Positions 1,554 to 44,094 of a stretch of 64,000 nucleotides of DNA are shown piece after piece. The translations under genes and the position numbers were made by a program. The stretch comes from Clitopilus passeckerianus (lineage: Eukaryota > Basidiomycota > Agaricomycetes > Agaricales > Entolomataceae). The DNA is taken from positions 372,001-436,000 of the forward strand of contig CALYLX010000101.1 in assembly GCA_944990035.1 (NCBI GenBank), given 5' to 3'. The first letter of the stretch is position 1. Every line of letters starts with the position of its first letter. The notes beneath the pieces were generated by a model. That model saw only the letters and a program-made list of their open reading frames with translations. It did not search any database and was not told the DNA's origin.

Positions 1554-4500
1554 TCAGAACCGGGAGGGTGTTTGCAGAAGCTTTGGCCTGCCATCATCAA
1601 CGTCATTGGAGCCTCCCTCCTTCATCTCGATGAATTTTAGGTTGCTTTTGCACCTAGTTTCAATCTTCGCCAGTGCGTATCCAGACCCCCTACTGCACTG
1701 CTCCAAAGCACCCTCATAGGCTAGTCTCGCGGCCAACCAGTCCTCCTTGTGAATGTAAACCTCGGCAAACTCCTCCAAAGCCTGCGCCACGTTCATCGGA
1801 GAACCATACTCCTGTGAATGCTCCAAGGCAGCCTTGAGAGCATCCGACAGCTCTTGACCCCATATCCCACATCCCTTCAGATAGCGAACTTTTGAGATGC
1901 GGAAGATCCCGGAGGGAAACCCGATACGTTCGAACATGTCTGCAGCTTCGTTATAAGCCGCCAGTGCTTTCGGATAGTTCCCCATCTTGCCGAAGCACTT
2001 GGAAGCTGATTGAAGACAGATAGCGGCTTCCTGAGTTTTCCCGAGGCTCGTGAAGCTCTGTTGTGCTTCTTGGAAGAGTTCCAGGGCCTCGTCGTTACTG
2101 ACGCCGCCTTGGATCCGAGATGTGTTGGCCTTGATGAGAGCCAGCCAGGCTGGAATCTCTTTCCCGTATTTTGGGTCCTCCCAACGTGAAGAAGCGCCTT
2201 TGAGATGTTGGTCAAGGTCGGGGAACTTTATTCCGGCGCTCTGTAGGCATTTGATTTCACCGAGCTCGGATCGACATGCGAGGACATGGTTGTCAAGGGA
2301 CAAGAACAACTTCGCGGCCTGCTGGAAGGCTGTACGCGAATCCTCGAAAAGTTGGACCTTGTAAAGGGTCTGGGCGAGGCAGAAGAGTGCTTCCGCCTCA
2401 CGTCTCGGTTCTTTGACTCTCCGAGCTAGCTCTACCACACGCTGTGGGAATTCTGCATGCGGACGCCTGAAATGCTGATACCAGCTGAAGATGATAAGGG
2501 CATCGAGCTGATAAGGTAGCGATAGGGGATCAATTATGTGTCTTGCTACAGATTCCTGGATGAAGTCGGTGGCCAGGGCTTGGATGTTGGATTCTTGGAG
2601 GGTCAACTGTGCGACATTGGCCTTGAAGTTCGGGCTGTTGGGGCCCTCAAACGAGACCGGATGATCGCAAAGGTGGTTGAAGCAAAGACGATAGACCTCT
2701 TTCCGGACGCGATTTGGAATATTCCCATGGCCCATATACGTCTGCACCACCGGAAGGACAATCATATGCACCTTCCTCTCGCCATTCACCTCGACGTTCC
2801 TTCTTACTAGCAGAGCCGTATCGCAAAGGATATCAACGGTGTCGGAGGAAAATGGCGACGCCCAAAGCTGAAGGTCGGAGCCATAAACACCGGCAGGAAG
2901 GAGGGAAAGAACTTGCAGAAGTTCCAATGTGCCGGGAGTTTGTTGGAAGAACGGATCCTCAATCGACATCTGGATCGACCGGTCCATCCCTTCCTGTCGG
3001 TTCGAAAGCATAGCCGTGCCTCTTCTGTTCCATTCCTCCAGAAGGCGACCTGGTTCGAACATGGATCTCTTGCCCCGGGTCGCCATGAGGGTCACAGCGT
3101 AGGGTAAGTAGCCAAGAGCTTTGAGAAGCGTGTCCAGCTCCGGATGGTCCTGGGCATTTGGATCTATCGCAGTGTATATCCGGCGTGAATCCTCAAGGGA
3201 TACTTCCAAGAGAGGCTCGGAAGTCCAGCTATCGAGGGGCGGGAACCCGGACCGCATTGTAACAAGAATCGCGACGTGGGGTAGGGCATTCAATGAACGG
3301 AGGATCTTCCGTACGTCCTCTTGGCTGCCCTCCGTAGGATGCCACGTAGTTTCGAAGTTGTCCAGTAGTATGATTCTGGGCTCGTCAGATTCCTGAAGTG
3401 AATCTAGAATGGCTCGGAGGGGATGATCCTGTTGTCCAGTAACGCGGAGTTGTTCTGCCAGGTGGGCCAGGAAAGCGCCCGGAGAATTGGCACTGAGGCA
3501 TGGGACCCAAAATCGGTGTTGCTCGGCGTACATCTCCTTCACTTTCGGGTGTTGCATCACTGCAACAGCAGTGGATGTCTTTCCCATCCCTCCTGGGCCG
3601 AGGATGCACACTCGTGTCCGAGACTTGTCTCCGCTGGTGATGTTTTCGGCAATCCTTGTAATGACGGCATCGCGTCCGAAAAAGTAGTTGGGAACTTCAG
3701 GCATGGCCGCTTCAACCACGATAGAATGCCTATGTGCCTTTGATCTCATCATAGCTCTCAGCTCCTCCACCGAGGTTTCTACCCTTCCGACAGCCGACTT
3801 GACGCCCTGAACCTCGCCTTTGATAGCTCGTACTTCCTGGTCTACCTCTTTCGTCAGGCCGTACAGCTTCTCCAGCTGGGTTTGGATCCTGGTAAGATCT
3901 TGAGAATCGTGTATACTGCGCAAAGTCTAAATGCAACAGGTTTATTAGTTTGTGATTCAGACTTCGCTCGGGCTTCACACACCTGAAATCGATCAATACC
4001 ATGCTGGAATTCATCAACACACTGGTCGATGATCTTGTGATTGGGCTGAGGAAGGAAGGCCAGGAGGATGCTGTTTTGCTGATTAATCCTGTCCAGACGG
4101 TCGGTAATCGTGGTCAAGCAACTGCAGATCAACTTGTTAAGAAATCGTATGAATCATGAACAAGATTGACATACTCTTTGAGGCCCCTGAGCTCTTCCAT
4201 GAGAATGGGAAATTTTGATTCATCTTTTGCTGAGTCGGTGCCTATTTTGGCAATAACGAGCAGAAATTCTGCGATTCGATTCTTGAGTTCTTGAACTCGT
4301 TCTTGGACCTCATTCAGAGCCTTGAAATTCCATAAGCATAAGATCACGAGGAATGCAGCATCTACTAACCTCGCAAGTTGAAATAATGGAAACACCTATG
4401 TTCAGGACTTCCCTCATAAGGGGAATTGGGACGAGGCCAGCAGCACCCTTGAGGATATCAATTGTTCTTTTCGTCGCCTCCAACACATATTCACTATTTG

Positions 4501-5386: not shown

Positions 5387-8300
5387 ATGGTAATCACCAA
5401 GCCTTTCACCCTGCGCGTTTATCTGAAGTCAACCTGACGCGTTGCATGTATACAGGCCGACCATGTAAGTCGCGAACTTAACGGAGATGTGATACTATAC
5501 GAACTACATATTCCAGATTGGAGATCTTGTAAGTTATCGAGTCGATGAGACTGGGAACTCCAACTCAACCCAAATCTGCAGGCTGTAGACTTCGTAAGCG
5601 CCTGGCCTTTGATGTCTTGATTCGGCCTACTGATGCACCATCGGTTTGCCTTTGCAGTGGGTACGTATCTTGAAAGATGAGAGGCTGCAATGATATGCTT
5701 GTCTGACTTGCTACCCTCTTGTAGCATACCCATTTCCAGGTATTGTGGACCTCTGAACTTCGGCTCTCAGGCACTTCATTTCTTAACCCTCTGTCGATCT
5801 TCTAGACCGTGAGCACCCTCCATACTCTCCTGTTACTTCTCATCTCAAACCTACCCGTATTCATAGCTCGTAAGTACCATGCCCCGTGTGATCTAGCATT
5901 TTCCGAATTCATCAACCTTTTGTAGTCGGTAAGTACCTATATTCCGTGTGGAACGGTTCAAGCAGAGCTTAACCCTATATAGCCCGTGAGTAACCAGTAC
6001 AATCGTCATTCACAGGTTCTAACAACATTTTAGGAGGTAAGAACCATCGTAAGGTTGTATTTAGCTAGAATCCTCACGGCCCCTACAGGATGAGGTACTA
6101 TTCTTGACCGTCTTCCGAGAATGCCGTCTAAATACTTGCACCTGTGCCTTTCTCTCACAGACCGTGAGTTCTTCATACGTTCTTATTGTCTGAGATCACC
6201 CTCACCTAATTTTCTGCAACAGAAGGTAACCAAGACTCTTAACGAATGAGGAGAAACTCAACAGACGCCGCATACTCGCAGGAAAAAGTACGCCCTTCAG
6301 TTATTACCGGTGGTGATTTGCTAACCATCTGGACCTCTTCAGGCTGTGAGAGCATTTCCCGGATCGTCCTGCTACTGACTCTGATTTCCCTGTTTCATGT
6401 CCAGAGAGTAAGTATTCCCATACTACAAGCTAAAGCAAGTACTGATTTTATTGCTGAAAATAGTTTGTGAGTCTCGTCAACTTGCTTACATCGGACCTGA
6501 GCTTATCGGGAACGTAGATGCGAAGGGTTCTAGAGGTAAATTTAGGAGGAATTGAGTCTAATTCTCCGCTCATTCATGTTGATTTTACGATAGACTCTGG
6601 TAAGTACCTTAGCGCACCTCGTACTCGCGAACTAGACCCCTTATCAACTTCTGTAGTCTCAAGGTTTCGTAAGCACCAGTGCCGTTTTCACCGAATTGAG
6701 TCAAAACAAACGACATATTTATAGACGAAGAAGGTGATTCATCATCCCATTACTTCATTTAGCAATGATTCTGACACTTTCCAGAGCGTAAGTGTGCCTC
6801 AAGGACCTTCTTATACAAGTTTTGATTTTGAACCCGGGCCTATTATCGGCTTTAGTTTGTATGTTTGAATTTCTGTTTCGTCGATTTACCTTCTGAGTCA
6901 ACCATATAATAGGATGTACGTGGCCAGAACATTGTCAACGTACAGGAGCTAATAGCGTTCCTGACTTTGTAGACGGTCAGTTGGTTACACCATATGACAA
7001 GCTTCTACATCTAATGCCTTATCTCATAGATGGTGAGCCTCATGTGCATAAAACCTCGATGACTTTCTGAGAAGCCATGACGTCTGGCAATAGTTGGTAA
7101 GTTCTCCGTGCTCCTAAGTCTTCCGCCCGCGATAGCTGAGCAAATACAGAGCGTAAGCCTGATTCCAACACACTCAAGAGTCACTATTCATATTTACACC
7201 CTCTTTCATCCTATCTCAGGAGGTGCGTTATTTGCAAAATGTCAACCGAATATAGACACGTAACGAGTACTTTTCTCAACCAGGAGGTACGTTATGAAGA
7301 ACACGCTTAGTAGCAGGAGGGTGATTTCTTCCTTTGTGACCGCTTAGTTCGTGAGTATTTTCCAATACACTAGCAAACCAACTGCCTTTTGGCTCATTGG
7401 CCCGGTTATAGAATGTAAGTTCCCAGCCGTGCTCGTCTTCATGTGACTCAGGACATGACTATGATCCCTTCTTGACAGGATGTAGGTCCTTCCTAATATC
7501 TTTTGCACCTCTCTCACCTTAATGCCTCAATACAGGACGTATGTTCCTCCATTCATGGTACAGATGGTTGACCCATCATTCACACTGGAATCTCTAGTTC
7601 GTGAGTAGACTATCCCTCCGTTTTTTTTTTTCCTATCCATAGACTACTCACAATATGATTACTCCGTCTTCAGAAGGTACGCAATAGCTGCCCTATCCTA
7701 CCGCTCTCGGCCTTCTTACCGCTAATCCACAGACTGTAAGCGCTGTTCTGAAGTTTGGCTTGAGGAATTGGGGAACTGAACTCTATTTAGACCGTGCGTG
7801 CTTCCTTCCGAAACTGTGCCCATTGTGACATACCTTGAAATCCAGATGGTGAGTTAAGCAATAGACTTTGATGAGTTTACGTTCATAAGTCGGCATTTAA
7901 GCTTGTACGTAGGTTCGAATTGCCATGTCTACGTTTGATCTAAGACGCCCCGTGAAAACTAGAAAGTGAGTATCCGATGTTGTTCTCTTCGTCGAAAGCT
8001 AAAGCTAATGGAACTAGTTCGTACGTGAACCACCACCTTTTGAGCCATGCAGGACTCTAACGGGGATTTGATTAGCTTCGTCAACGCCCGGTATGCCCTT
8101 CTGCGTGTCATATTTCTTTCGTTTACTCACCCATCTATGACAGGAGGTCAGTTTTTCCTAGAATTAACTCTTCCGGCCCCTTTCTGATAGGCAAATCTTT
8201 TTGGGAATTAGAAAGTAAGTCATCTGATAAAATCGGCAGGATCAAGTACTTACCCCATCCGATCAGCTGGTATGCAGTAACTGTACATTCAAGTCAAAGA

Positions 8301-9977
8301 ATTGACGATTGACGCTTGTGAATTTCCGGCAGAAAGTAAGAGGACCCCTCCTGAAAACCCGACGTTCATTGTCTGACTAAAATCACGCAGCATGTTGGTT
8401 CCGTCATCTTCCTCTCCGACCTGAAGTTTGAGTACAAATATTTTACTACAGATTGTGAGTCCCGCCTTCTTGATTGTTAACTGAAACTGATGAAAAAATT
8501 CGACTTCTAGCCTGAAAACGTGAGTAGTTGATCTTTGCCGTCCGTCACGACACTATATGGCGTCCGCGCAGATTGTGAGTAAAGGTGTTTCGACTCAGGC
8601 GGTTCCTACGACTCAACAATACGTTCTCAGCCGAATGTAAGCTTTTGTAGGAGATTTATGAAGGAACAGATAACAAAAGCTTCGCCCTTGCGCCGTTAGG
8701 AAACTGTTCGTGTTTCACAATTGTTTCTTATGAGCACTTGTGACTCCTTCGTAGGGAGTGAGCCTTCCTATTCAACGTGAAATATCCTCGGAAATTGACG
8801 ATGGGGATGTATTGCCGTTTCTCAGCAAGTAAGCACCTTCTGCGCCTGTTTACCTTCAGTTCTAACCCTAGAATATAGAGGGTATGCATATAAATTCTTT
8901 CGGTCTCATTGCTCTCTGAATCAGCCTTGCCAAGCGTATGCAATTGGTACGTCGTCATCTTTGGGTGATGTTGAAGATAGGTCTCACATCGTAATTAGAT
9001 TGTGAGTTGCTGTTTTCTGCTCTCCAAAGGATAATAATCAACGTATCCTATTTGTAGCAAGTACGTAATTCTTTGGCTCGTCCTAAGACAAGGCTACACG
9101 CTGATTTGCGTAGAACGTGTGTTTGGTCCTCTACCCATAGAATTCTTATGCTAACCACCTATCAGTTTGTGCGTTCTGGATGCAGTGTCGTGTTGACCAC
9201 CACATAAAACTGATGTGAGGATACGTCGCATCGCCTAGGTGGTAAGGCACTTTCACGGAAATTCAAACCCATTATTCTGATCGTTGTCCCGTCTATCGCA
9301 GGAAGTACGTCCTGGGTTATCGTAACACGCCAGTTGCTAACCAAGACCAATTCCCGTTTGCCTCTCTAGGATGTACGTTTCCGTTGAACCAGACGAAAAT
9401 GACTATAATATCTGACGAACTCATGCTTGCCAGTATGTGCGTGATTGCTTCTGATCCCAAGTCGAGACTAGGCGGCCTGACCGGCTTCTTCAGTTCGTGA
9501 GTGTTCCCACCAAATCCACGCATGTGTAGATAACTGACGGCGACGTAGCGGGTATGTGGCTCCACCAACTTTCGACCAAGATGTCTCCAAATAATTTACA
9601 TGAATTGATGGCCGACAGAGTGTGAGTGCCGTTTTAACTATGTCCTCCTGACCTCTCTGACACGTACTACAGGAGGTGTGTTCTTGTCATCCCGTCAACT
9701 TTATACCACTTTTGTCGACACTTCCCTGTATCTAGATGGTATGTTCGTTCTATCACGACTCTTTGCAGAGTACTCACAACCCTTTAGCAAGTAAGCCAGC
9801 TTTTCCAACGTTATAAATCCATTTTTTTTAACGTTTGGTTGCAGACAAATGAACGCGAGCTGTGAGTACCATCCACGCTTCCACGTGGATCCTGGTTACT
9901 GACCTGTTCCTGCAGGTTCCGCGGCGGTGCGTTCTTCACAACATAGGAATTCCTGCATGTTATCAATATGTTCCCAG
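5387..9977 (+). other. Micro-exon array: 74 exons and 74 introns, 56 exons of one codon each
   Basis: Every unit reads AG|exon|GT. One-codon exons start at 5658, 5806, 5867, 5926, 5983, 6034, 6161, 6223, 6343, 6405, 6464, 6785, 6856, 6913, 6973, 7030, 7094, 7150, 7220, 7284, 7348, 7412, 7479, 7536, 7598, 7674, 7733, 7791, 7846, 7902, 7963, 8018, 8144, 8212, 8267, 8333, 8391, 8452, 8572, 8755, 8826, 8879, 8999, 9058, 9114, 9166, 9239, 9302, 9370, 9434, 9494, 9549, 9619, 9673, 9736, 9788. Longer exons: 5387-5389 (ATG), 5456-5464, 5517-5528, 5582-5593, 5725-5739, 6089-6094, 6282-6287, 6518-6535, 6594-6599, 6657-6668, 6725-6733, 8076-8090, 8511-8519, 8631-8636, 8700-8705, 8935-8946, 9845-9861, 9916-9926. 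All introns are 48-73 nt (mean about 57), with donors such as GTAAGT, GTGAGT, GTACGT, GTGCGT, usually YAG acceptors (AAG at 7901 and 8934) and often a CTNAY branch-like motif. All but the last two introns are phase 0. The joined 352 nt has no stop in frame; the +1 and +2 frames stop within about 25 codons. Least certain: the exons at 8700, 8935 and 6725. Confidence 0.88.
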
Positions 9978-11566
9978 ATATCAGTCAAATGATCAATAAG
10001 AATCTACGACTCCGACTTCCCCTACATGTCCTCCATCTCCCTGACCTGAAGTTGACAGACATGTATGGTATCATGAACCATCTCGACACAGAAATCCACA
10101 ACAAATTCCTCAACAATTTCCAGAAATATACGGGCAAGATGGACGAAATTGAGAACTGGGTAGAGGAGAAGACTGGATTTGCCATTCTTTCTCACCGATG
10201 GTCCGACGATGAACTGACGTTGCAGGATGTCGAGAAGCTGGCGAGCTTCACCGCCGAGGGAATCAGCAGGTACATCAATGAAGTCAAAACCAAAGCATGG
10301 CAGCGAAGTTATTCTGTCATAGAGGCTATACACAAGTATAGCGCCGAAACGAAGCCAGCGGAGGGAGAGAACCGTTTGGAGGAGTTGAAGAAGTTACGGC
10401 CATATATCAAGAATTGCGTGGGCCTGATTAAATTGATCAACTTCTGCGAGCTCTCCCTTCGACAGGGATGCGAGCTCGCTTGGTTGGATACCGGATGCAT
10501 CGACAAAACCAGTAGCGCAGAGCTCGAAGAGTCCGTACGATCTATGTTTCGCTGGTACCGGACTTCCAAGGTCTGCATTGTACACCTCAGCCGAACCACA
10601 TACGTATCCGACCTTCACCGCGATCCTTGGTTCTCACGAGGATGGACACTCCAAGAGTTGCTTGCACCGAAAGCGCTCAAATTCTACAATTCACAATGGA
10701 AAGCGGTGTCCGATCAACAGAACGACAAGACAGTTACTCAGGAGCGGACCCCTCTCATGCAAACCGTTTCTCGCATTACTGGTGTCTCCGTGGCAGAGTT
10801 GATCAGCTTTGTCCCAGGCATGCGGAACATTCGCGAGAGGCTTAGCTGGGCGTCCAAGAGAAGCACCACGCGTATTGAGGACATGGCCTACTGCCTTATC
10901 GGTATTTTTGATATCAGTCTTCCCATCGCATACGGAGAAGGCAAAATCGCTTTCTTCCGATTCCAGGAAGAAATGATCAAACGGACAGGAGATCAAGGCC
11001 TATTCCTATGGAATGGCATGGCCTCGCCATATAACAGTGTCCTGGCCGCATCTCCGGACAATTTCGCCATCCTCGAGTACGACCTCAGGCGATATAATAC
11101 CAAGGGCCGATCCCCATCCTTTTTGACCAACTTCGGGTTGCGAATCTCCTTGCCCATTCACGACATCCTCCCCACAGTTCAGCCTCGTAGAGATGGCAAA
11201 GTGTCATTTGTATTTGACATCGGAACCAGGAAAGAACCCATGCGTTCGGCATCCAAAGACGAGTACAATATTGCGAAGGCCGCAATAAATGTAGCAGTTC
11301 GCGGCGACGAACCAGCTACCCAAGCACGTAGGACGGGAAAGTGGACATACGTCGCCGACCCAAGTGATCTTGGAGGCGACAAGAGTCTGGAGGGACAGGC
11401 TGTGACTTTCAAGGTTGCTGTCCTGGCCAGCTCGCAGACGGCAGCTCTCGCGGTCTTGCTAATCAGATACGAGAATGACGAGTCGCGCTATCGCAGAGTG
11501 CCTGGTTCCCCTGTCTTCCTGGGAGAATGGTCCTCAGACGTCTTGACGGAAATCATTATTGCATAA
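5387..11566 (+). CDS. HET-domain protein whose N-terminus is encoded by a 74-exon micro-exon array
   Basis: Predicted at about 646 residues from 75 exons. Exon 1 ends right after its ATG (5387-5389). Micro-exons up to 9926 supply residues 2 to about 117; the last exon is 9978-11566. The joined frame begins MADHIGDLAVDFWHTHFQ, reads as an ordinary charged, probably helical segment, and continues without a break into the long ORF. The last exon carries a HET domain: GFAILSHRW, then WLDTGCIDKTSSAELEESV, MFRWYRTSKVCIVHL, and WFSRGWTLQELLAPKALKFY. In fungi, HET-domain proteins act in heterokaryon incompatibility and cell death. The N-terminal array-encoded domain matches nothing I recognise, and about 230 residues after the HET domain are also unassigned. 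An ATG at 9968, inside the last intron, would give a 532-residue form without the array domain. Neighbours are two NLR paralogues. Confidence 0.9.
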
Positions 11567-11839: not shown

Positions 11840-14800
11840 TCAGAATCGTGACGGCGTCATAAGCGTGATCTCGTCCTTTGTGTCATTGGTCTTGGATCCC
11901 TTCTTGGAGTCAATGAACTTGAGATTGTTAACGCAACGTCGTTCAATCTTCGCGAGTGTGTACCCCGTTCCCCGCTTACACTGGACAAGAGCCCCTTCGT
12001 ACGCAACTCGAGCTGCAGCCCAATCCTGGGCACGGACATACACTTCGGCGAACTCGTCCAATGCCTGCGCGACGTTCATGGGAGATCCAAACACCTGGGA
12101 ATGCTCCAAAGCAGCCTTGAGGGCTTCTGTCAACTCCTCGCCCCATTGTCCAGACGCTTTGAGGTAGCGCACTTTGGAAATGCGGAAGATTCCCGAAGGT
12201 AATCCGATCTCCTCGAATATACGTGCTGCGGCGTCCCATTCCTTGATTGCCTCGACATAATTTCCCTCGTGGGCAAGGCACTTCGATACAGACTGTTGAC
12301 ATACAGCTGCCTCTCTACGGCAACCAAGCTCGGAGAAGGCGTTCTGCGCATTGCGGTAAAGTTTCAGGGCTTCAGCATTGTCCAGACCGCCCTTGATGCG
12401 TGAAGTGTTGGCCTTGACAAGATCCAACCATGCATGTGCTTCCTGTCCGTACTGATCGCCACCATAGCGTTGGTATGCCTCGTTGATTAGCTTCTCCAGC
12501 TCTGGGAAGCTGCCACCAAGGCTCTGCATGCACTGTACCACAGAGATCTCTGATCGACATGCAAGGAGATGATTATCGAGGGAGCGATAGAGCTTAGCGA
12601 CCTCCGCGTAGGCTCGACGTGCGTCTTCAAACCGCTGGATTTTGTAGAGGGTGTGCGCCAGGCAGAACAAAGCTTCCGCCTCCCTGCTCGTGTCTCTGGT
12701 CTTGCGAGCGAAGTTGACGACAAGCTCTCCTATGTCCGGTTGAGGGCGAGTCCAAGCCTGGTACCACGCGAACGCTATGAGACCATCTAACTGCGAGGAA
12801 AGCAGTGTTGGGTCGACGAAATGCGTATCACCCGCATGTTGTGCGAAGTGGGTGACCAGTGCATGAATGTTGGTCTCTTGTGCTGTGATTGCGGGAACAT
12901 TGTCTTTGAAGTCGGGGTCGTTTGGGCCTGCACCGAGGACCTTATGCTTGGATAGAAAAGCGAAACAGGCTCGATAGACCTCCTGGCGAACGGGTTCCTC
13001 AATGCGTCCGTGACGCATGTACGACTGAACAACCGGTAACACGAAGATATGCAACTTTTTTTCTCCCCGCACTTCCACGGGTCTGGTTGCCACAAGGGCG
13101 GTGTCACGCAGAATGTCGATGGCATCGGAGTCGAATGAGGCCGCCCAAAGGGAGAGGTCACTGCTGTACAATCCCGCAGGTAAGAGCGAAAGTACTTGAA
13201 GGAGCTTCTTCGCATCTGGTGTTTGTTGCAGCATGGGGTCCTCGATTGAGAGCTCGATGGAATGGTCCATGCCATCCAAGCCCCTGGACAGCACTGCTGG
13301 TCCACGTCGCTCCCATTCATCCAACAGACGTTTTGGGTCGAAGCAGGAACGCTTCCCTCTGGTGGCCATCAATGTGACAGCATAGGGAAGATGACCTAGG
13401 GTGTCAAGGAGCTTTCCAAGGTCGGGGTGACCTTCTGCACTTGGATCAATGGCTGTGTATATCCTACGGGAATCCTCAGAGGCGACCTCTAGCAGATTCT
13501 CTGAGGTCCAGGACTCGATTGGAGGGAAGGATGATCTCATAGTCATGAGGATGGCAAGGTGGGGGAGGGAGTTGAGGGAACGGAGAATCTTCTTGACCTC
13601 TTCTTGCGAGCCTTCTCCAGGGCGCCATACTGTCTCGAAGTTGTCGAGAAGTATGACTCGTGGCTCATGGGACTCCTGAAGTGTGGAGAGGATGGCGCTG
13701 AGGGGATTATCCGGCTGACCTGTCGCCCGAAGCTGCTCGGCGAGATGAAGCAGGAAAGCACCGGGTGAATTGGTGCCAATGCAAGGCATCCAATATCGGT
13801 GATGTTCTGCAAACCGAGCTGTCACCGCGGGGTGGTTCATGATGGTAATTGCTGTTGATGTCTTCCCTGCACCTCCTGGCCCAAGGATACAGACTCTCGT
13901 CTTTTTGTGGTCTTCACTTGCGAGCTGGCTAGCGATCTTGGTGACGATCTCGTCACGGCCGAAGAAGAATTCGGGAGGATCTGGCATAGTAGCCTCGATT
14001 ATCACCGAATGAGTTGGTGCTTTGAACATCATCATCGACTTCAACTCCGCCACCGAGTCCTCCACCCTCCCAACGATTTCTTTGACGTCCCGCACCTCAC
14101 CAGTCAGCTCCTGAACACCCTTGTTAGCGATGCCATATATGGCCGCAATCTGGGCTTGAATGTTGGTCAAATCCTGTGCAGCGTGGATGCCTCTGAGGAC
14201 CTGTGGGACCTGATTAGCCTCGTGGTAGATTAACGGACCTGAGCGCTAATTACCTGGAAACGTTGGATGCTGTCCTGGAATTCTGTAGCACATTGATCGA
14301 TCAACTTCTGGCTCGGTTGAGGAAATAGTGCCAGGAGGAACTTGTTCTGCTTGCTAATCTTTTCCAATCGGTGGGTGATTGACACCAAACAACTGCGCAG
14401 AACTGCGGTGTTAGAAGCCGTTTGAGAGTGCTATCGAAGAGATACTCACGTTTTCATGCCGTTGAGTTCGTCTGTAAGGTTGTTTATCACCTTTTCCCCG
14501 TCGCTGGCTGCTTTTGCTATCACTAACAGGAACTCTGTAATCCGGGCTTGTAGTTCTTGCACCTTTCCTTGAACCTCTCCTACCGCCTGAAGTAGTAGTG
14601 GAAATCAGCACGGGATGGGAAGTGTAGAACAAGCAGCTTACCTCACAAACGCCAATGAGGGTGATACCAAGTCCGATCACCTCCTGGACCAACGGGAATG
14701 GTACTAAGCCTGCCACACCCTGCAGGATGTCCAGTGTCCTCTTCGTTGCTTCCAACGCGTACTCTCCTTTAGAAGGCGTTGTCGCTTCGTCATGTTCGTA

Positions 14801-36337: not shown

Positions 36338-38808
36338 ATGCCAAGGATGCTGCACATGCGCTCGGTACTCGCACTATGGCTCGCCTCGGCCTCATCGTTT
36401 GCTTTTGCCCAGAAGGCTGGTTCTTTTGCAGATGGCGGTAACACGCAGGTTAGCGCTATGATGGTGCGTGCTCTCAATCAGGGATTTACAGTGGAGCAAG
36501 GCTGATATGCCTCGAAATTCCATTAGATGTTCTTGGGGAATGAGGAAAAGGTCTATATAATGGATAAAGCTGAAGGGAATGCAGCCACCGTGGCGGGACA
36601 TCCAGCATGGGGAGCAGTATGGTATGTGTTTACAAAAAATTTTTGAGACGTGAATTGACAGAAAGAATAGGGATATTTCAACGCACCAAACCACTGTTAT
36701 GGATATCAAGACCAACGTTTTCTGCGCTTCAGGCATGCACTTCCCTAACGGTTCATATATGGCCTTTGGTGGAAATGGTGCTGTCGGGCGAGGAGGAGGT
36801 AAAGGTTCGACCGGCACATGGGATGCAGAATACCAAGATTTCGACGGAGGACAATCTATTCGTGTCCTAAACCCATGCACAGATTCGGACAACTTCAACG
36901 ATCCAAGTTGTCAGTGGTTCGATGACCCCAGTGTGCTTGCCATGCAGAAGAGGCGATGGTACTCGACCGCAGAACCTCTGGCAGACGGGACCGTCGTCCT
37001 AATTGGTGGATTCGTGAATGGTGGCTACATCAACCGCAACTACCCAAACAACGATCCCCAGTTCGGTTCAGGAAACCCCCAATATCCTGCTTCCGAGACT
37101 ACCTACGAGTTCTTCCCCGCTAACGGCAAACCCGCTACGACCCTCCCGTTCTTGATCCAGACCTCTGGCCTTAACACCTACGTCCATGCTTTCCTCCTCA
37201 ACTCCGGCAAGATGCTTCTTCAGGCCAACTACTCGACGAGTAAGTTACGCGGCTCTCTTTCTAGCGGCCTTTACTGACGAAGTCGCAGCTATATGGGATT
37301 ACAACGCCAATACCGAGACTCCTTTGCCTGATATGCCAGGCCAGGTTATCCGCGTCTACCCCGCCTCTGGTGCAGTCGCCATGCTCCCTCTTACCCCTGC
37401 CAACAACTGGAACCCGACTATCCTTTTCTGTGGTGGATCCGACATGCCCGACGCAGCTTGGGGCGACTATGCCAATCCCGCCATTAACACCTGGGATTAT
37501 CCTGCTTCAACCGATTGCCAACGCTTGACCCCAGAACCCGCAGACGGCAGTGCCCCCGCATACGAGAAAGATGACGATATGTTTGAAGGAAGGACTATGG
37601 GCCAGTTCATCATCCTCCCAGACGGCAAGATGCTCGTCGTCAATGGCGGCCTTAACGGCACAGCAGGATACGCAGAGAAGACAGGACAGACAGTCCTCTA
37701 CGCTGACATGCCTTTCGGTATGTCGCTCGCCTCTGGACCTGTTGGAAAGCCCGCAATCTACGATCCTAACGCACCTGCTGGCTCCCGCTGGTCAAACGCT
37801 GGTTTTGACACCTCCAACATCGCACGTCTGTACCATTCGTCAGCTATGCTCCTCCCGGATGGCTCCGTCCTTATCGCCGGCTCTAATCCCAATGTTGATG
37901 TCAATACGACTACCATCTTCCCTACGGAGTACCGCGCTGAGATCTTCTACCCTCCCTACTTCTCCGCCAAGACCCGTCCTGCACCTCAGGGTGTCCCCAA
38001 GACCATCTCGTACGGAGGTAACTCATTCGACTTGACTATCCCTGCATCGTCATACTCTGGCTCTGGCAATGCGGCTGCAGGCAACACCACTGTTGCCCTC
38101 GTCCGTGGTGGGTTCACCACCCACGCGATGAACATGGGCCAGCGCTACGTCCAGCTCAACAATACATTCACTGTGAACAAGGACGGCTCATACGTCCTCC
38201 ACGTTGCACAAGCACCCAACCCCCAAATTCTCCAGCCCGGCCCTGCACTCCTCTTTGTCGTCATCAACGGCATCCCGTCCAAAGGCACCATGGTCATCGT
38301 CGGAAGTGGCAAGATCGAGAAACAGCCCACCCAGCCACCCAGCGAGCTCCCAGCCAACGTTCTCGCGGACGAAGCTAAAGGCGGCAGTGGTTCGGACAAC
38401 GACAGCGCGCACGACGACAGCGGGTCGTCCTCCTCACTCTCAAAGGGTGCTCTCATTGGCATTATAATCGCAGCAGTCGGCGCAGTCGGCCTCCTGGGTG
38501 CCCTCGCCCTCATCTTCATCCGCCGCCGCCGCAACTCTGGCGCACCCACGTACGAGATGGCCTCCAACGGTATGACTCGCGGAGCCGCCGCCCCTCCTGG
38601 GATACTAGGCGGTGCGAATAGAGGCTCAGACTCGAGTGCGTTCGTGCCCCTGCACCAGCAGAATGAGAGCCAGACGTGGAGCTCGAGTATGTATAGCTTT
38701 AGTCCATATAAGGATGATGCTGCTGCTCAGAGTATGGGCTCTTATGACCCGTATAATCCTCCTGCGCATGGTAGCGGGGGATTGCAGCCGCCACCGATGA
38801 GGAGGTGA
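36338..38808 (+). CDS. Glyoxal-oxidase-like copper radical oxidase, membrane-anchored, copy 1
   Basis: 769 residues from four exons: 36338-36463, 36527-36621, 36671-37239, 37289-38808. A signal peptide (VLALWLASASSFAFA) is followed by AGSFADGGNTQVSAMM. Copper radical oxidase features are the radical-cofactor Cys in TNVFCASGMHFPNGS and the Tyr in RRWYSTAEPLADGTVVLIGG (together the Cys-Tyr cross-link), RLYHSSAMLLPDGSVLIAGS (Tyr-His copper ligands), and the late His in RGGFTTHAMNMGQRYV, within a DUF1929-type C-terminal domain. A Ser-rich linker and one membrane span (LIGIIIAAVGAVGLLGALAL, then an Arg-rich stop-transfer) follow, with a short cytosolic tail. It should oxidise small aldehydes or alcohols with release of H2O2, at the cell surface. 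Tandem paralogue at 41178-44094. Confidence 0.93.
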
Positions 38809-41177: not shown

Positions 41178-44094
41178 ATGCTGCCGCTTTCGCTACTGGC
41201 CCTTGGGCTCGCTTCCGTCTCTTCTCCAGTGCTCAGTGCAGCGACCGCTGGTTCGTTCGCTGATGGAGGAAACACTTTGGTTAGCGCTATGATGGTGAGT
41301 GGGAAATTCCATCTTGTGCGAGGTTCTGGAGGGTTTGCACTGGTCATGTTGTGCGTCGTGGACTGACGATCCCATGTGGTAGTGGGACACGAGTTGGAGT
41401 CTAGCAGGAACTGCTGATCGATTCAATTTTCCGTGGATTTGTGCTGATCTTTATGTTTAGATGTTCCTGGGAAATGAGGAGAAGGTCTACATCCTTGACA
41501 AGGCAGAGGGAAACGCTGCCACGGTTGCAGGCCACGCCGCATGGGGCGCAGTTTAGTGAGTATCATCTCCAAGCCTATATTCTTCAACTTTTCTACCGCC
41601 ATATTGTTCGCTACGATGAGCACTTTCATTGTCGCCTTCGCTCCCCTCTACCCTCCTCGCCTTGCTCCGTTGTTCATTGACTATTCTTCTGCGCCACCGA
41701 CGTACTCGACCCACCTATGCCTGTTACATTCTTGGTCTTCATTTTGCCATCCATTCTACTGCCTTCATTACTGTGGTGTAATACCGTCGCGACGCTCTTT
41801 TTCGATCACTGTCTCAATATCTCTTGTAATGCTTCGTTGCTGACATAACCTTCGTTTACCAGTGACATTGCTTCGCGCCAAGCAACAGTAATGGACATAA
41901 GAACAAATTCGTTCTGTGCTTCAGGGATGCACCTACCAAACGGTTCTTACGCAACCTTTGGCGGCAATGGTGCTATCGGCCCTGGTGGAAACATCGGTTC
42001 TCAGAAGAATCAGTATGGCAACGGCCAATGGGACGCAACATATCAGGATTTCGACGGAACAAAATCCATCAGGATATTGAATCCCTGTACAAGCTCGGAC
42101 AACTTCAACGATCCCAACTGCCAGTGGTTCGACGAGCCTGATGTCTTGGCGATGCAGAAGCAAAGGTGGTATTCTACCGCTGAGCCTCTTGCGGATGGTT
42201 CCATGGTCTTGATCGGTGGTTTCGTAAATGGTGGTTACATCAACCGAAATTACCCCAATGTCGACCCCCAATTCGAAGGTGGTGCGGCTGAGAACACTTT
42301 CGAGTTCTACCCTGCCAATGGCCGAGGCGTTACCCCGTTGAACTTCTTGATCAAGACTTCCGGTCTGAATGCTTATCCTCATGCGTTCTTGCTCAACTCC
42401 GGCAAGATCCTTCTCCAGGCCAATTACTCTACCAGTAAGCTCTCTCTCGTATCAGTTTCATGGCCGGCTGATTAAAATTTTTGTCAGCCATCTGGGATCC
42501 CAACACAAACCAGGAAACCGATCTCCCTGACATGCCTGGCCACGTTGTTCGTGTTTACCCAGCCTCTGGCGCCGTTGCCATGCTCCCGCTTACCCCCGCC
42601 AACAACTACAACCCGACCATTCTTTTCTGTGGTGGTTCCGACATGCCGGATGCTGCTTGGGGCAATTACGCCCACCCCGCTATCGACACCTGGAAGTACC
42701 CCGCTTCCCGCGATTGCCAGAGGCTGACACCAGAGCCCACCGACGGTTCTGCTGCACAGTACATTGCGGACGATCAGATGTTGGAAGGCAGGACCATGGG
42801 TCAATTCATCATTCTTCCCGATGGCAAATTCCTCGTTATCAACGGTGGCCTGAACGGTACCGCCGGTTACGCAGAGGCAACGGGAGAGACAGCTTTGTAT
42901 GGTGACATGCCTTTCGGAATGTCCCTGGCTTCAGGACCTGTCGGCACACCTGCCATTTATGATCCAAACGCACCCGCTGGTAAACGTTGGTCGAATGCTG
43001 GCTTGGGAACTTCCAATATTGCCCGCCTGTATCATTCCTCTGCCATGCTCTTGCCGGACGGATCCGTCCTCGTTGCTGGTTCAAATCCCAATGTTGACGT
43101 CAACACCACCACCATTTTCCCCACCGAGTATCGTGCTGAGATCTTCTACCCTCCCTACTTCGCGTCCAAGATTCGCCCTGAACCATCTGGCGTGCCGAAG
43201 ACCATCTCCTATGGTGGTAATGCGTTCGATATCACGATCCCCGCATCATCCTATGCTGGCTCGGCCAATGACGCAGCTCAGAACACCACTGTTGCTCTCG
43301 TTCGTGGTGGCTTCACCACTCACGCAATGAACATGGGTCAACGTTACGTCCAACTCCAGAACACCTTCACCGTTAACAAGGATGGCTCCTACACTCTTCA
43401 TGTCGGTCAAGCACCCAACCCCAACGTCCTTCAACCTGGACCTGCCCTCCTCTTTGTCATTATCGATGGTATCCCGTCCAAGGGTACACTCGTCACTGTT
43501 GGCAATGGACAAATGGGGCCTCAACCAACTGCTCCCCAGCCTTCGCTCCCGGCTAGCGTTCTCCTCGACGGCGCGAAGGGCTCTGCAGATGGGTCATCCG
43601 CTCCCGGCTCCTCGAATGACAGCACAACCAGCAGTGGCTCGAGTTCTCACACTGCTCTCATTGCTGGCATCGCAGGTGCAGCAGCAGCTCTCCTTATCGT
43701 TGGCGCCCTCATCTTCTTCCTTATGCGCCGTCGACGTGCATCTGCCGCAGCTGCAGCTACCAGTGGTCACCGCCAAGTTCCTTCGTCGGCATCATCCTAC
43801 GGGATGTCTACAGCTGGTGTAGGAGCAGGGGCCGGTGTCGGAGCAGGTGCTGCCTTGATGGGTGGGGCTCATATGCATAGGGACTCTGATTCCAGTGCTT
43901 TCGTTCCCCTCCGACAGGAGAACTACAGCCAGGCTTGGAACGGAAGCACATACTCCCTCAATTCTGCCCCGTACAAGGACGATGCTGCGCATTATAACTC
44001 TTCGGCGACCGGTTCACCGAGAGGCGCGAGCATTGATTACGACCCGTATGGTGCTGGGAGGTCGACACCACGACCTGTACCTGGTCGGTACTGA
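41178..44094 (+). CDS. Glyoxal-oxidase-like copper radical oxidase, membrane-anchored, copy 2
   Basis: 796 residues; exons 41178-41294, 41461-41555, 41863-42434, 42488-44094. The second exon is 95 nt in both copies and the splice positions match copy 1, so this is a tandem duplicate. Signal peptide MLPLSLLALGLASVSSPVLS. The Cys (TNSFCASGMHLPNGS), Tyr (QRWYSTAEPLADGSMVLIGG), Tyr-His (RLYHSSAMLLPDGSVLVAGS) and late His (RGGFTTHAMNMGQRYV) are all present, so it should be active. The C-terminal span (ALIAGIAGAAAALLIVGALI) precedes RRRR and a longer Gly/Ala tail than in copy 1. The third intron (about 307 nt) is unusually long for this window. Confidence 0.93.

What the first reader, a model, noticed from the sequence alone, without database searches (positions are those of the whole stretch)
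5387..9977. Tandem micro-exon array: 56 one-codon exons in a row-like arrangement build the N-terminus of a HET-domain protein
About 4.6 kb upstream of the HET ORF resolves into 74 micro-exons split by 74 introns of 48-73 nt. Fifty-six exons are exactly 3 nt; the rest are 3-18 nt. All but the last two introns are phase 0, so introns sit at almost every codon boundary: about one per 4.8 coding nt. The joined 352 nt is open in the expected frame, begins with ATG and enters the HET ORF in frame, while the other two frames stop within 25 codons. Chance cannot easily give 74 evenly spaced AG-exon-GT units with this outcome. Micro-exon genes exist in schistosomes and plants, but I know of no array of single-codon exons like this. 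Standard gene finders would start the gene at 9968 and miss it.
Basis: seen in the sequence. Interest (0 to 1): 0.98.

Follow-up and report, generated by a model that had tools for sequence, protein, structure and literature searches.

The report
One-codon exon arrays before HET domains
In this fungus, likely a gilled mushroom, 21 of 24 gene copies found of a family linked to cell death (HET) carry, ahead of the main exon, a row of up to about 90 single codons each bounded by splice-site sequences, which is predicted to be spliced codon by codon into the protein's front end; the codons are conserved at some loci and rewritten at another between what are likely its two parental copies.

Summary
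In 5387-9977 the motif AG-NNN-GTRNG occurs 52 times (200 shuffles: mean 1.7, maximum 6), and 3 nt is the only exon length that stands out. My parse: 73 introns, 57 exons of 3 nt, 346 joined nt, open from ATG 5387 into the HET ORF. Between the two copies of the locus, exons differ at 2 of 346 sites (both synonymous), intron bodies at 7.0%.

The window is not unique: 21 of 24 HET loci found have arrays. In the 19 besides the window pair, 686 of 695 internal exons are 3 nt and none of the 686 is a stop. In several the unit [codon + 50 or 66 nt intron] is tandemly repeated. At one locus two copies have 40 and 50 codons in unrelated order inside flanks 92-94% identical.

Best reading: a likely spliced, coding, rearrangeable N-terminal segment before a HET domain. 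This is a new variant: other division, other gene family, N-terminal, tandem codon-intron unit. No RNA evidence was available.

The parts
5387..5389 (+). Start codon, the whole coding part of exon 1; intron 1 begins directly behind it (ATG|GTAATC). Paralogues g10, g17, g29 and g29b also have ATG directly before the first parsed intron
5390..9977 (+). Array: 73 introns (74 if GAAACT is an exon) separating micro-exons; 57 of 73 exons 3 nt long counting the ATG
8700..8705 (+).
9845..9861 (+). 17-nt exon, the first that leaves phase 0
9916..9926 (+). 11-nt exon before the last intron; in the C98 copy the frame also stays open through the last intron
9978..11566 (+). Last, long exon: HET-domain ORF (PF06985, 34.5 bits, cut-off 22.5)
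1557..3923 (-). Neighbouring nSTAND1-TPR (NLR-type) ORF, NACHT also over its cut-off; context only
11843..14170 (-). Neighbouring nSTAND1-TPR (NLR-type) ORF, NACHT just under its cut-off; context only

Best explanation
The stretch is an array of one-codon exons that is likely spliced codon by codon into the N-terminal segment of a HET-domain protein, and in several related genes the repeating unit at DNA level is one codon plus one 50 or 66 nt intron. Shown: splice-site-bounded codons in register with the HET ORF; near-absence of codon change between the two copies of the window locus and of two others; tandem intron-codon repeats in other arrays; and one locus whose two copies (taken as the two haplotypes from their like flanks) differ in unit number and codon order while flanks and introns stay about 90% alike. 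Inferred: each intron is removed by the ordinary spliceosome by intron definition, one after another. Because nearly every unit is phase 0 and 3n, units can be gained, lost or skipped without breaking the frame. Unequal recombination between the like introns would add, remove and reorder codons, so the introns act as spliced-out homology for recombination. The protein segment so made would be the variable, recognition-type front end of a HET cell-death protein. Arrays whose specificity is fixed, such as the window's, would then freeze: codons conserved, introns drifting until the repeat is no longer visible.
For: Chance excluded: 52 strict sites vs maximum 6 in 200 shuffles; k = 3 is far the commonest spacing also in g26 (74), g21 (48), g18 (47), g15 (35) and g10 (22), the next commonest being 0-6. 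Family-wide: at least 24 distinct HET loci are hit in the genome (lower bound). 21 have arrays; C13/C113 have none in about 7 kb upstream; C26 is a fragment not examined. In the 19 array loci other than the window pair, as far as fetched, 686 of 695 internal exons are 3 nt under a smooth exon-length prior; most introns are g26 94, g18 78, g24 71, g17 70. Coding: 0 stops in 686 one-codon exons; with four second copies left out (g16 and g21 both kept, 15 loci) 0 of 562 against 34.4 expected from base counts per position; on the shorter stretches plus the window 0 of 463 against 30.7; loose YAG-NNN-GTR sites outside the array hold 5 stops in 73, inside 0 in 53. Selection: window vs C98 exons 2/346 changed, both synonymous third positions; intron bodies 250/3588, donor hexamers 18/438, acceptor triplets 3/219; all 73 AG and 72 of 73 GT kept (one GT to GC); 10 of 73 introns but 0 of 73 exons changed length. 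g15/g19: 3 of 40 codons changed, all synonymous, intron bodies 10.0%. g27/g28: two CTC/CTT changes in the shared units, synonymous. Repeat unit and turnover: introns within some arrays are near-copies; self-similarity g16 .964, g26 .857, g10 .724, g28 .609, g15 .586, window .566 (shuffled .52-.56). g16/g21: 40 vs 50 codons, common subsequence 20 vs shuffled mean 18.1 and maximum 21 of 200, flanks 92.3% and 93.7% identical, HET ORF dN .026, dS .084. In g16 the 23 unit pairs with most alike flanking introns differ at 3.1% of intron sites and 58% of codon sites.
Against: No RNA: splicing, and which units are included, are untested. The recognition role rests on analogy plus one strongly hypervariable pair of six (g16/g21) and one small one (g29/g29b, 6 of 12 codons); in the window, g15/g19 and g27/g28 the codons are conserved, and g18/g23 differ at 17 of 53 codons, mainly at the 5' end, where g23 is a decaying copy. 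[quoted passage not shown] PMC10197012). That g16/g21 are the two haplotypes is inferred from identity, not from a phased genome. In g16 and g21 codons are not linked to their flanking introns (r .01 and .04), though in g17 and g29 they are (r .26 and .56); simple copying of units does not predict the former without much recombination or selection. Among pairs under 2% intron difference the codon is shared in 1 of 2 (g16), 2 of 2 (g21) and 2 of 3 (g17); repeated codon runs are no longer than in shuffles in five of six arrays. No database protein aligns to the micro-exon peptide of the window (120 relatives) or of g17. Order-dependent amphipathicity is nominally significant for the whole window peptide (P .001; its one-codon exons alone P .13), g26 (.02) and g16 (.03), not in five other arrays (uncorrected). 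A splice model trained only on the paralogues recovered 7 introns of the window (100 shuffles: maximum 2), so the window's parse leans on a model trained partly on itself. Array and ORF do not always decay together: g23 (HET ORF split) and g25 (TAA in the ORF) have a broken unit, but g10, whose HET ORF is also interrupted, has none. The HET-ORF model found no PDB match at E <= 0.001.
Confidence: 0.7

Rival explanations
1. The main purpose is isoform diversity: one-codon exons are included or skipped at random or under control, so one gene makes many N-termini, as reported for the truffle NACHT-ANK genes.
For: Nearly every unit is 3n and phase 0, so skips keep frame (71 of 73 exon ends in the window). 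The precedent is described as alternatively spliced in three papers (passages).
Against: No transcripts. In the window, g15/g19 and g27/g28 the codon string is conserved between copies, and the g16/g21 difference is in the DNA, so splicing is not needed to make variety. The two ideas can both hold.
Confidence: 0.35
2. Introner-like insertion: near-identical introns invaded a once continuous coding exon at every codon boundary, so like introns separate old, unrelated codons.
For: In g16 introns are near-identical while codons are unrelated and unlinked to them.
Against: Two unit searches hit only stretches upstream of HET loci, in array orientation (97 and 103 places; only best candidates are scored), whereas introner-like elements lie in unrelated genes (PMC4457414, passage). 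The two copies g16/g21 differ in unit number inside like flanks; neighbouring units in g26 recur together with mostly the same codons. An exact 3-nt spacing is natural for tandem units, not for insertion.
Confidence: 0.12
3. The introns, not the codons, matter: many short introns delay or boost expression, and codons are only what splicing tolerates.
For: Intron number is large in the arrays; purine-rich codons (GAA, AAA, AGA) are the commonest.
Against: No stops in 686 codons and synonymous-only change in the conserved arrays point to selection on the encoded residues; codon make-up differs strongly between arrays, for example Pro/Gly-rich in g24.
Confidence: 0.08
4. Chance, assembly artefact or a non-coding relic.
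For: None found beyond the lack of RNA.
Against: Shuffle controls, the same design at 21 loci, stop-codon tests.
Confidence: 0.02

Closest known systems
Codon-sized micro-exons of the NACHT-ANK (nank) family of Tuber melanosporum (Iotti et al. 2012; not held; seen only as cited in PMC9815663, PMC4986451 and PMC10197012)
   Same: Dozens of 3-bp exons per gene in an expanded fungal gene family of the nonself-recognition kind
   Different: Ascomycete truffle; NACHT-ANK receptors; the micro-exons are said to diversify the C-terminal recognition domain by alternative splicing. Here: a likely agaric, HET-domain genes, N-terminal, a tandem codon+intron repeat in several arrays, and codon order rewritten in the DNA at one locus. 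Whether the truffle introns are tandem repeats I could not read
HNWD / het-d, het-e WD40 repeat genes of Podospora anserina (PMC12222747, passages)
   Same: DNA repeats kept alike by concerted evolution with a few hypervariable sites, and length polymorphism; HET domain in the same proteins (PMC10197012)
   Different: There the repeat is a protein repeat and stays in the protein; here most of the repeat is intron and would be spliced out, leaving one codon per unit
Schistosome micro-exon genes (PMC10526429, passages)
   Same: Many very short exons, mostly multiples of three, hard for automatic annotation
   Different: Exons of 3 or 6 to 81 nt (mostly 15), introns of 0.1-5 kb, secreted proteins; here mostly 3-nt exons and introns of about 50-70 nt
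Introner-like elements of fungi (PMC4457414, passages)
   Same: Near-identical short spliceosomal introns in many copies
   Different: Introners are dispersed in unrelated genes; these were hit only upstream of HET loci

Membership tests
HET-domain family (PF06985) | Match over the Pfam cut-off | tested here: met
   34.5 bits vs 22.5 for the window ORF
Truffle-type codon-sized micro-exon genes | Dozens of 3-bp exons in one gene | tested here: met
   57 in the window, up to 92 in g26; inferred from sequence, not cDNA
Truffle-type codon-sized micro-exon genes | NACHT-ANK receptor gene, micro-exons in the C-terminal recognition domain | tested here: not met
   The gene codes for a HET domain and the array is N-terminal
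Truffle-type codon-sized micro-exon genes | Alternative splicing of the micro-exons | not testable with these tools
   No transcripts available
HNWD-type concerted repeats | Repeats alike within a gene, with hypervariable positions and allelic length change | tested here: inconclusive
   Seen at g16/g21; not in the window pair, g15/g19 or g27/g28
HNWD-type concerted repeats | Repeats encode WD40 protein repeats | tested here: not met
   No Pfam match above cut-off for the four joined array peptides tested
Introner-like elements | Near-identical introns | tested here: inconclusive
   True in g16 and g21, partly in g26; not in the window
Introner-like elements | Copies dispersed in unrelated genes | tested here: not met
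   97 and 103 places, all upstream of HET loci on C34/C36 and C155/C106; only best candidates are scored
Schistosome micro-exon genes | Long introns (0.1-5 kb) | tested here: not met
   Introns of 48-118 nt
Schistosome micro-exon genes | Secreted protein with signal peptide | not tested
   No signal-peptide prediction was run

The most novel reading that the evidence does not exclude
A codon-shuffling gene: the DNA is a minisatellite of near-identical introns, each carrying one codon; recombination between the introns reorders single codons, and splicing removes the repeat, so a highly repetitive locus encodes a freely rewritable, non-repetitive recognition peptide in front of a cell-death domain.
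Probability: 0.4. Interest if true: 0.95.

Novelty: new variant of a known kind. Interest (0 to 1): 0.87.

Why it matters
If the splicing is confirmed, fungal HET genes may widely be annotated without their N-termini: of 120 database relatives of the joined protein only 1 aligns before residue 111, and 27 begin to align at residues 117-119, right where the window's array ends, 16 of them within the first five residues of the database protein; this fits missed arrays but also fits a simple start of conservation. It would show that the spliceosome can string together about 90 one-codon exons, give a clear case of introns multiplying in tandem with a codon, and offer a candidate for the variable part of HET proteins, whose diversifying forces are called an open question in PMC10197012 (passage seen).

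Tried and rejected
Chance, assembly artefact and non-coding relic: rejected. Introner invasion: disfavoured.

A model trained on paralogue introns, applied to the window, recovered only 7 introns; it is dominated by their repeat introns, so a window-specific model was used. A first frame-aware run anchored on a chance SHRW motif gave a wrong gene end and was redone. In one search the g28/g27 codon table reports two non-synonymous changes; a mis-parsed 5-nt exon had shifted the frame there, and read directly the changes are CTC/CTT. Parse oddities left standing: a zero-length exon in g26, a 5-nt exon in g27 and g28, a 50-nt exon in g23 and a 56-nt exon in g25.

A search for homologues of residues 1-60 of the g17 joined protein scored 95 candidates, none at E <= 10. 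A viral-contig scan gave none; three contigs of a bacterial MAG carry HET-like ORFs but no arrays. PDB sequence and fold searches with the HET ORF were uninformative. The GG-rich start of the g17 peptide recalls an amyloid-signalling motif; recalled and untested; Pfam shows nothing. The ten paper searches were (listings with the start of abstracts). Passages were seen of PMC5639578 (two 3-nt exons in a fungal lipS gene), PMC10526429, PMC12222747, PMC9815663, PMC10197012, PMC4674806, PMC4986451 and PMC4457414; no paper was read whole. The truffle precedent surfaced.

Full report
What is there. The 4.6 kb upstream of the HET ORF is built of units AG-codon-GTRNG spaced mostly 50-75 nt. The strict motif occurs 52 times in 5387-9977 and 23 times in the rest of the + strand. 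200 dinucleotide shuffles of the stretch give a mean of 1.7 and a maximum of 6, and of the exon lengths 0-15 only 3 is enriched, 51 sites against 0-3. A parse blind to frame gives 55 of 70 internal exons at 3 nt; the opposite strand gives a single intron. Donors mostly read GTRNGT, acceptors YAG, and 42 of 73 introns carry CTNAY 8-45 nt from the 3' end against 25 after shuffling the intron bodies. The frame-aware parse runs from ATG 5387 through 73 introns into the HET ORF, 346 nt joined, 71 of 73 exon ends in phase 0. Between parses a few exons flipped between alternatives; the 3-nt core did not. A model trained on the paralogues alone recovered only 7 of the window's introns, against at most 2 in 100 shuffles.

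It codes. The assembly holds a second copy of the locus on contig C98, taken as the other haplotype. Exons differ at 2 of 346 sites, both synonymous; intron bodies at 250 of 3588 (7.0%), donor hexamers at 18 of 438, acceptor triplets at 3 of 219; all 73 acceptor AGs and 72 of 73 donor GTs are kept, the exception being a GT to GC change; ten introns but no exon changed length. The HET ORF shows 39 synonymous and 4 non-synonymous codon changes. None of the window's 57 one-codon exons is a stop.

It is family-wide. Searches of the own genome hit at least 24 distinct HET loci. Of these, 21 carry arrays: 5 each on C155 and C106, 3 on C157, 2 each on C97, C34 and C36, and the window pair. The closest paralogue pair of the window, C13/C113, has none in about 7 kb upstream; a fragment on C26 was not examined. 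In the 19 other array loci, as far as fetched, 686 of 695 internal exons are 3 nt under a length prior that knows nothing of three. The longest arrays have 94, 78, 71 and 70 introns. There is no stop codon among the 686; leaving out four second copies (g16 and g21 both kept), none in 562 where 34.4 are expected from base counts. In g10, g17, g29 and g29b, as in the window, an ATG directly precedes the first parsed intron.

The unit is codon plus intron. In several arrays the introns are near-copies of one another, typically 66 nt in g16, g21, g24, g18 and 50 nt in g26, g17, g14, and the codon differs from unit to unit. Searches with two kinds of unit hit 97 and 103 places, all upstream of HET loci on C34/C36 and C155/C106, so these look like tandem repeats and not dispersed introners, with the caveat that only best candidates are scored. 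Intron self-similarity falls from .964 (g16) through .857 (g26).724 (g10).609 (g28) and .586 (g15) to .566 in the window, against .52-.56 after shuffling, which I read as an age series. In g26 neighbouring units recur 23 or 30 units away with introns up to 98% alike and mostly the same codons; but repeated codon runs are longer than in shuffles only in g17 (6 against a maximum of 5), not in the five other arrays tested.

Two regimes. In the window, g15/g19 and g27/g28 the two copies share the codons apart from synonymous changes. At g16/g21 the flanks are 92.3% and 93.7% identical, the array introns about 90% identical and the HET ORF has dN .026 and dS .084, yet the arrays have 40 and 50 codons whose order is no more alike than chance: common subsequence 20, shuffled mean 18.1, maximum 21. 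Only 8 and 6 codon kinds are used there, where about 22 and 25 would be expected from the pooled arrays. g29/g29b differ at 6 of 12 codons, 4 non-synonymous; g18/g23 differ at 17 of 53, mostly at the 5' end, and g23's HET ORF is split. Hypervariability is thus clear at one pair of six, suggestive at another, confounded by decay at a third, and absent at three. In g16 and g21 codons are not linked to their flanking introns; in g17 and g29 they are.

What it may do. [quoted passage not shown] The window gene lies between two nSTAND-TPR, NLR-type ORFs. The joined window peptide is amphipathic beyond shuffled order (P .001; its one-codon exons alone P .13), as are g26 and g16 (.02.03); five other arrays are not (uncorrected). 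The account I favour is a rewritable N-terminal recognition or oligomerisation segment, built by unequal recombination between like introns and frozen under purifying selection when its partner is fixed. Splicing, recognition and the recombination route are inferred. Skipping of units would nearly always keep the frame, so isoform diversity is an open companion idea.

Against what is known. Three papers state that Tuber melanosporum NACHT-ANK genes use alternative splicing of 3-bp or codon-sized exons, citing Iotti et al. 2012 (PMC9815663, PMC4986451, PMC10197012; passages seen; the original is not held). The kind is therefore known. Different here are the likely basidiomycete host, the HET family, the N-terminal place, the tandem codon-intron unit and the rewritten copies. 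Whether the truffle arrays share the last two I could not check. The host is placed in Agaricales, near Lyophyllaceae, by a glyoxal oxidase ORF of the window, whose first named hits (Tephrocybe, Tricholomella, Lyophyllum, Asterophora, Termitomyces) are 68-84% identical (family of three of them checked). Of 120 database relatives of the joined protein, 27 begin to align at residues 117-119, where the array ends, 1 before residue 111, and 69 after 131; this suggests, but does not show, that N-termini are missed elsewhere too.

Noticed in passing
1557-3923 (-) and 11843-14170 (-): nSTAND1-TPR (NLR-type) ORFs on both sides of the HET gene; NACHT is over its cut-off only in the first
   Followed up: partly
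37186-38805 (+) and 42481-44091 (+): Two glyoxal-oxidase-like ORFs about 5 kb apart; one was used to place the fungus near Lyophyllaceae
   Followed up: partly
9927-9977 and the same place in L009: In the C98 copy the last intron need not be spliced, as the frame is open through it; the window copy has an in-frame TAG there
   Followed up: partly
L046 and L047 (contigs C13, C113): The HET paralogue closest to the window gene (49% identity) has no micro-exon array in about 7 kb upstream, a natural contrast for the origin of the arrays
   Followed up: partly
L017 + L041 (g17): The first about 27 one-codon exons spell a GG/His/Ile-rich stretch that recalls amyloid-signalling motifs of fungal NLRs; recalled, not tested
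   Followed up: no
L016 + L035 and L021 + L036 (g16, g21): Only 8 and 6 codon kinds are used in 40 and 50 units, none starting with A
   Followed up: partly
L024 + L042 (g24): An array of 70 one-codon exons that is Pro/Gly-rich, unlike the charged peptides of other arrays
   Followed up: no
L010 / L012 (g10): The HET ORF is interrupted in this copy although its array looks unbroken
   Followed up: no
L043-L045: Contigs of a bacterial MAG (NYXK01) carry HET-like ORFs, probably eukaryotic contamination or transfer; no arrays
   Followed up: partly
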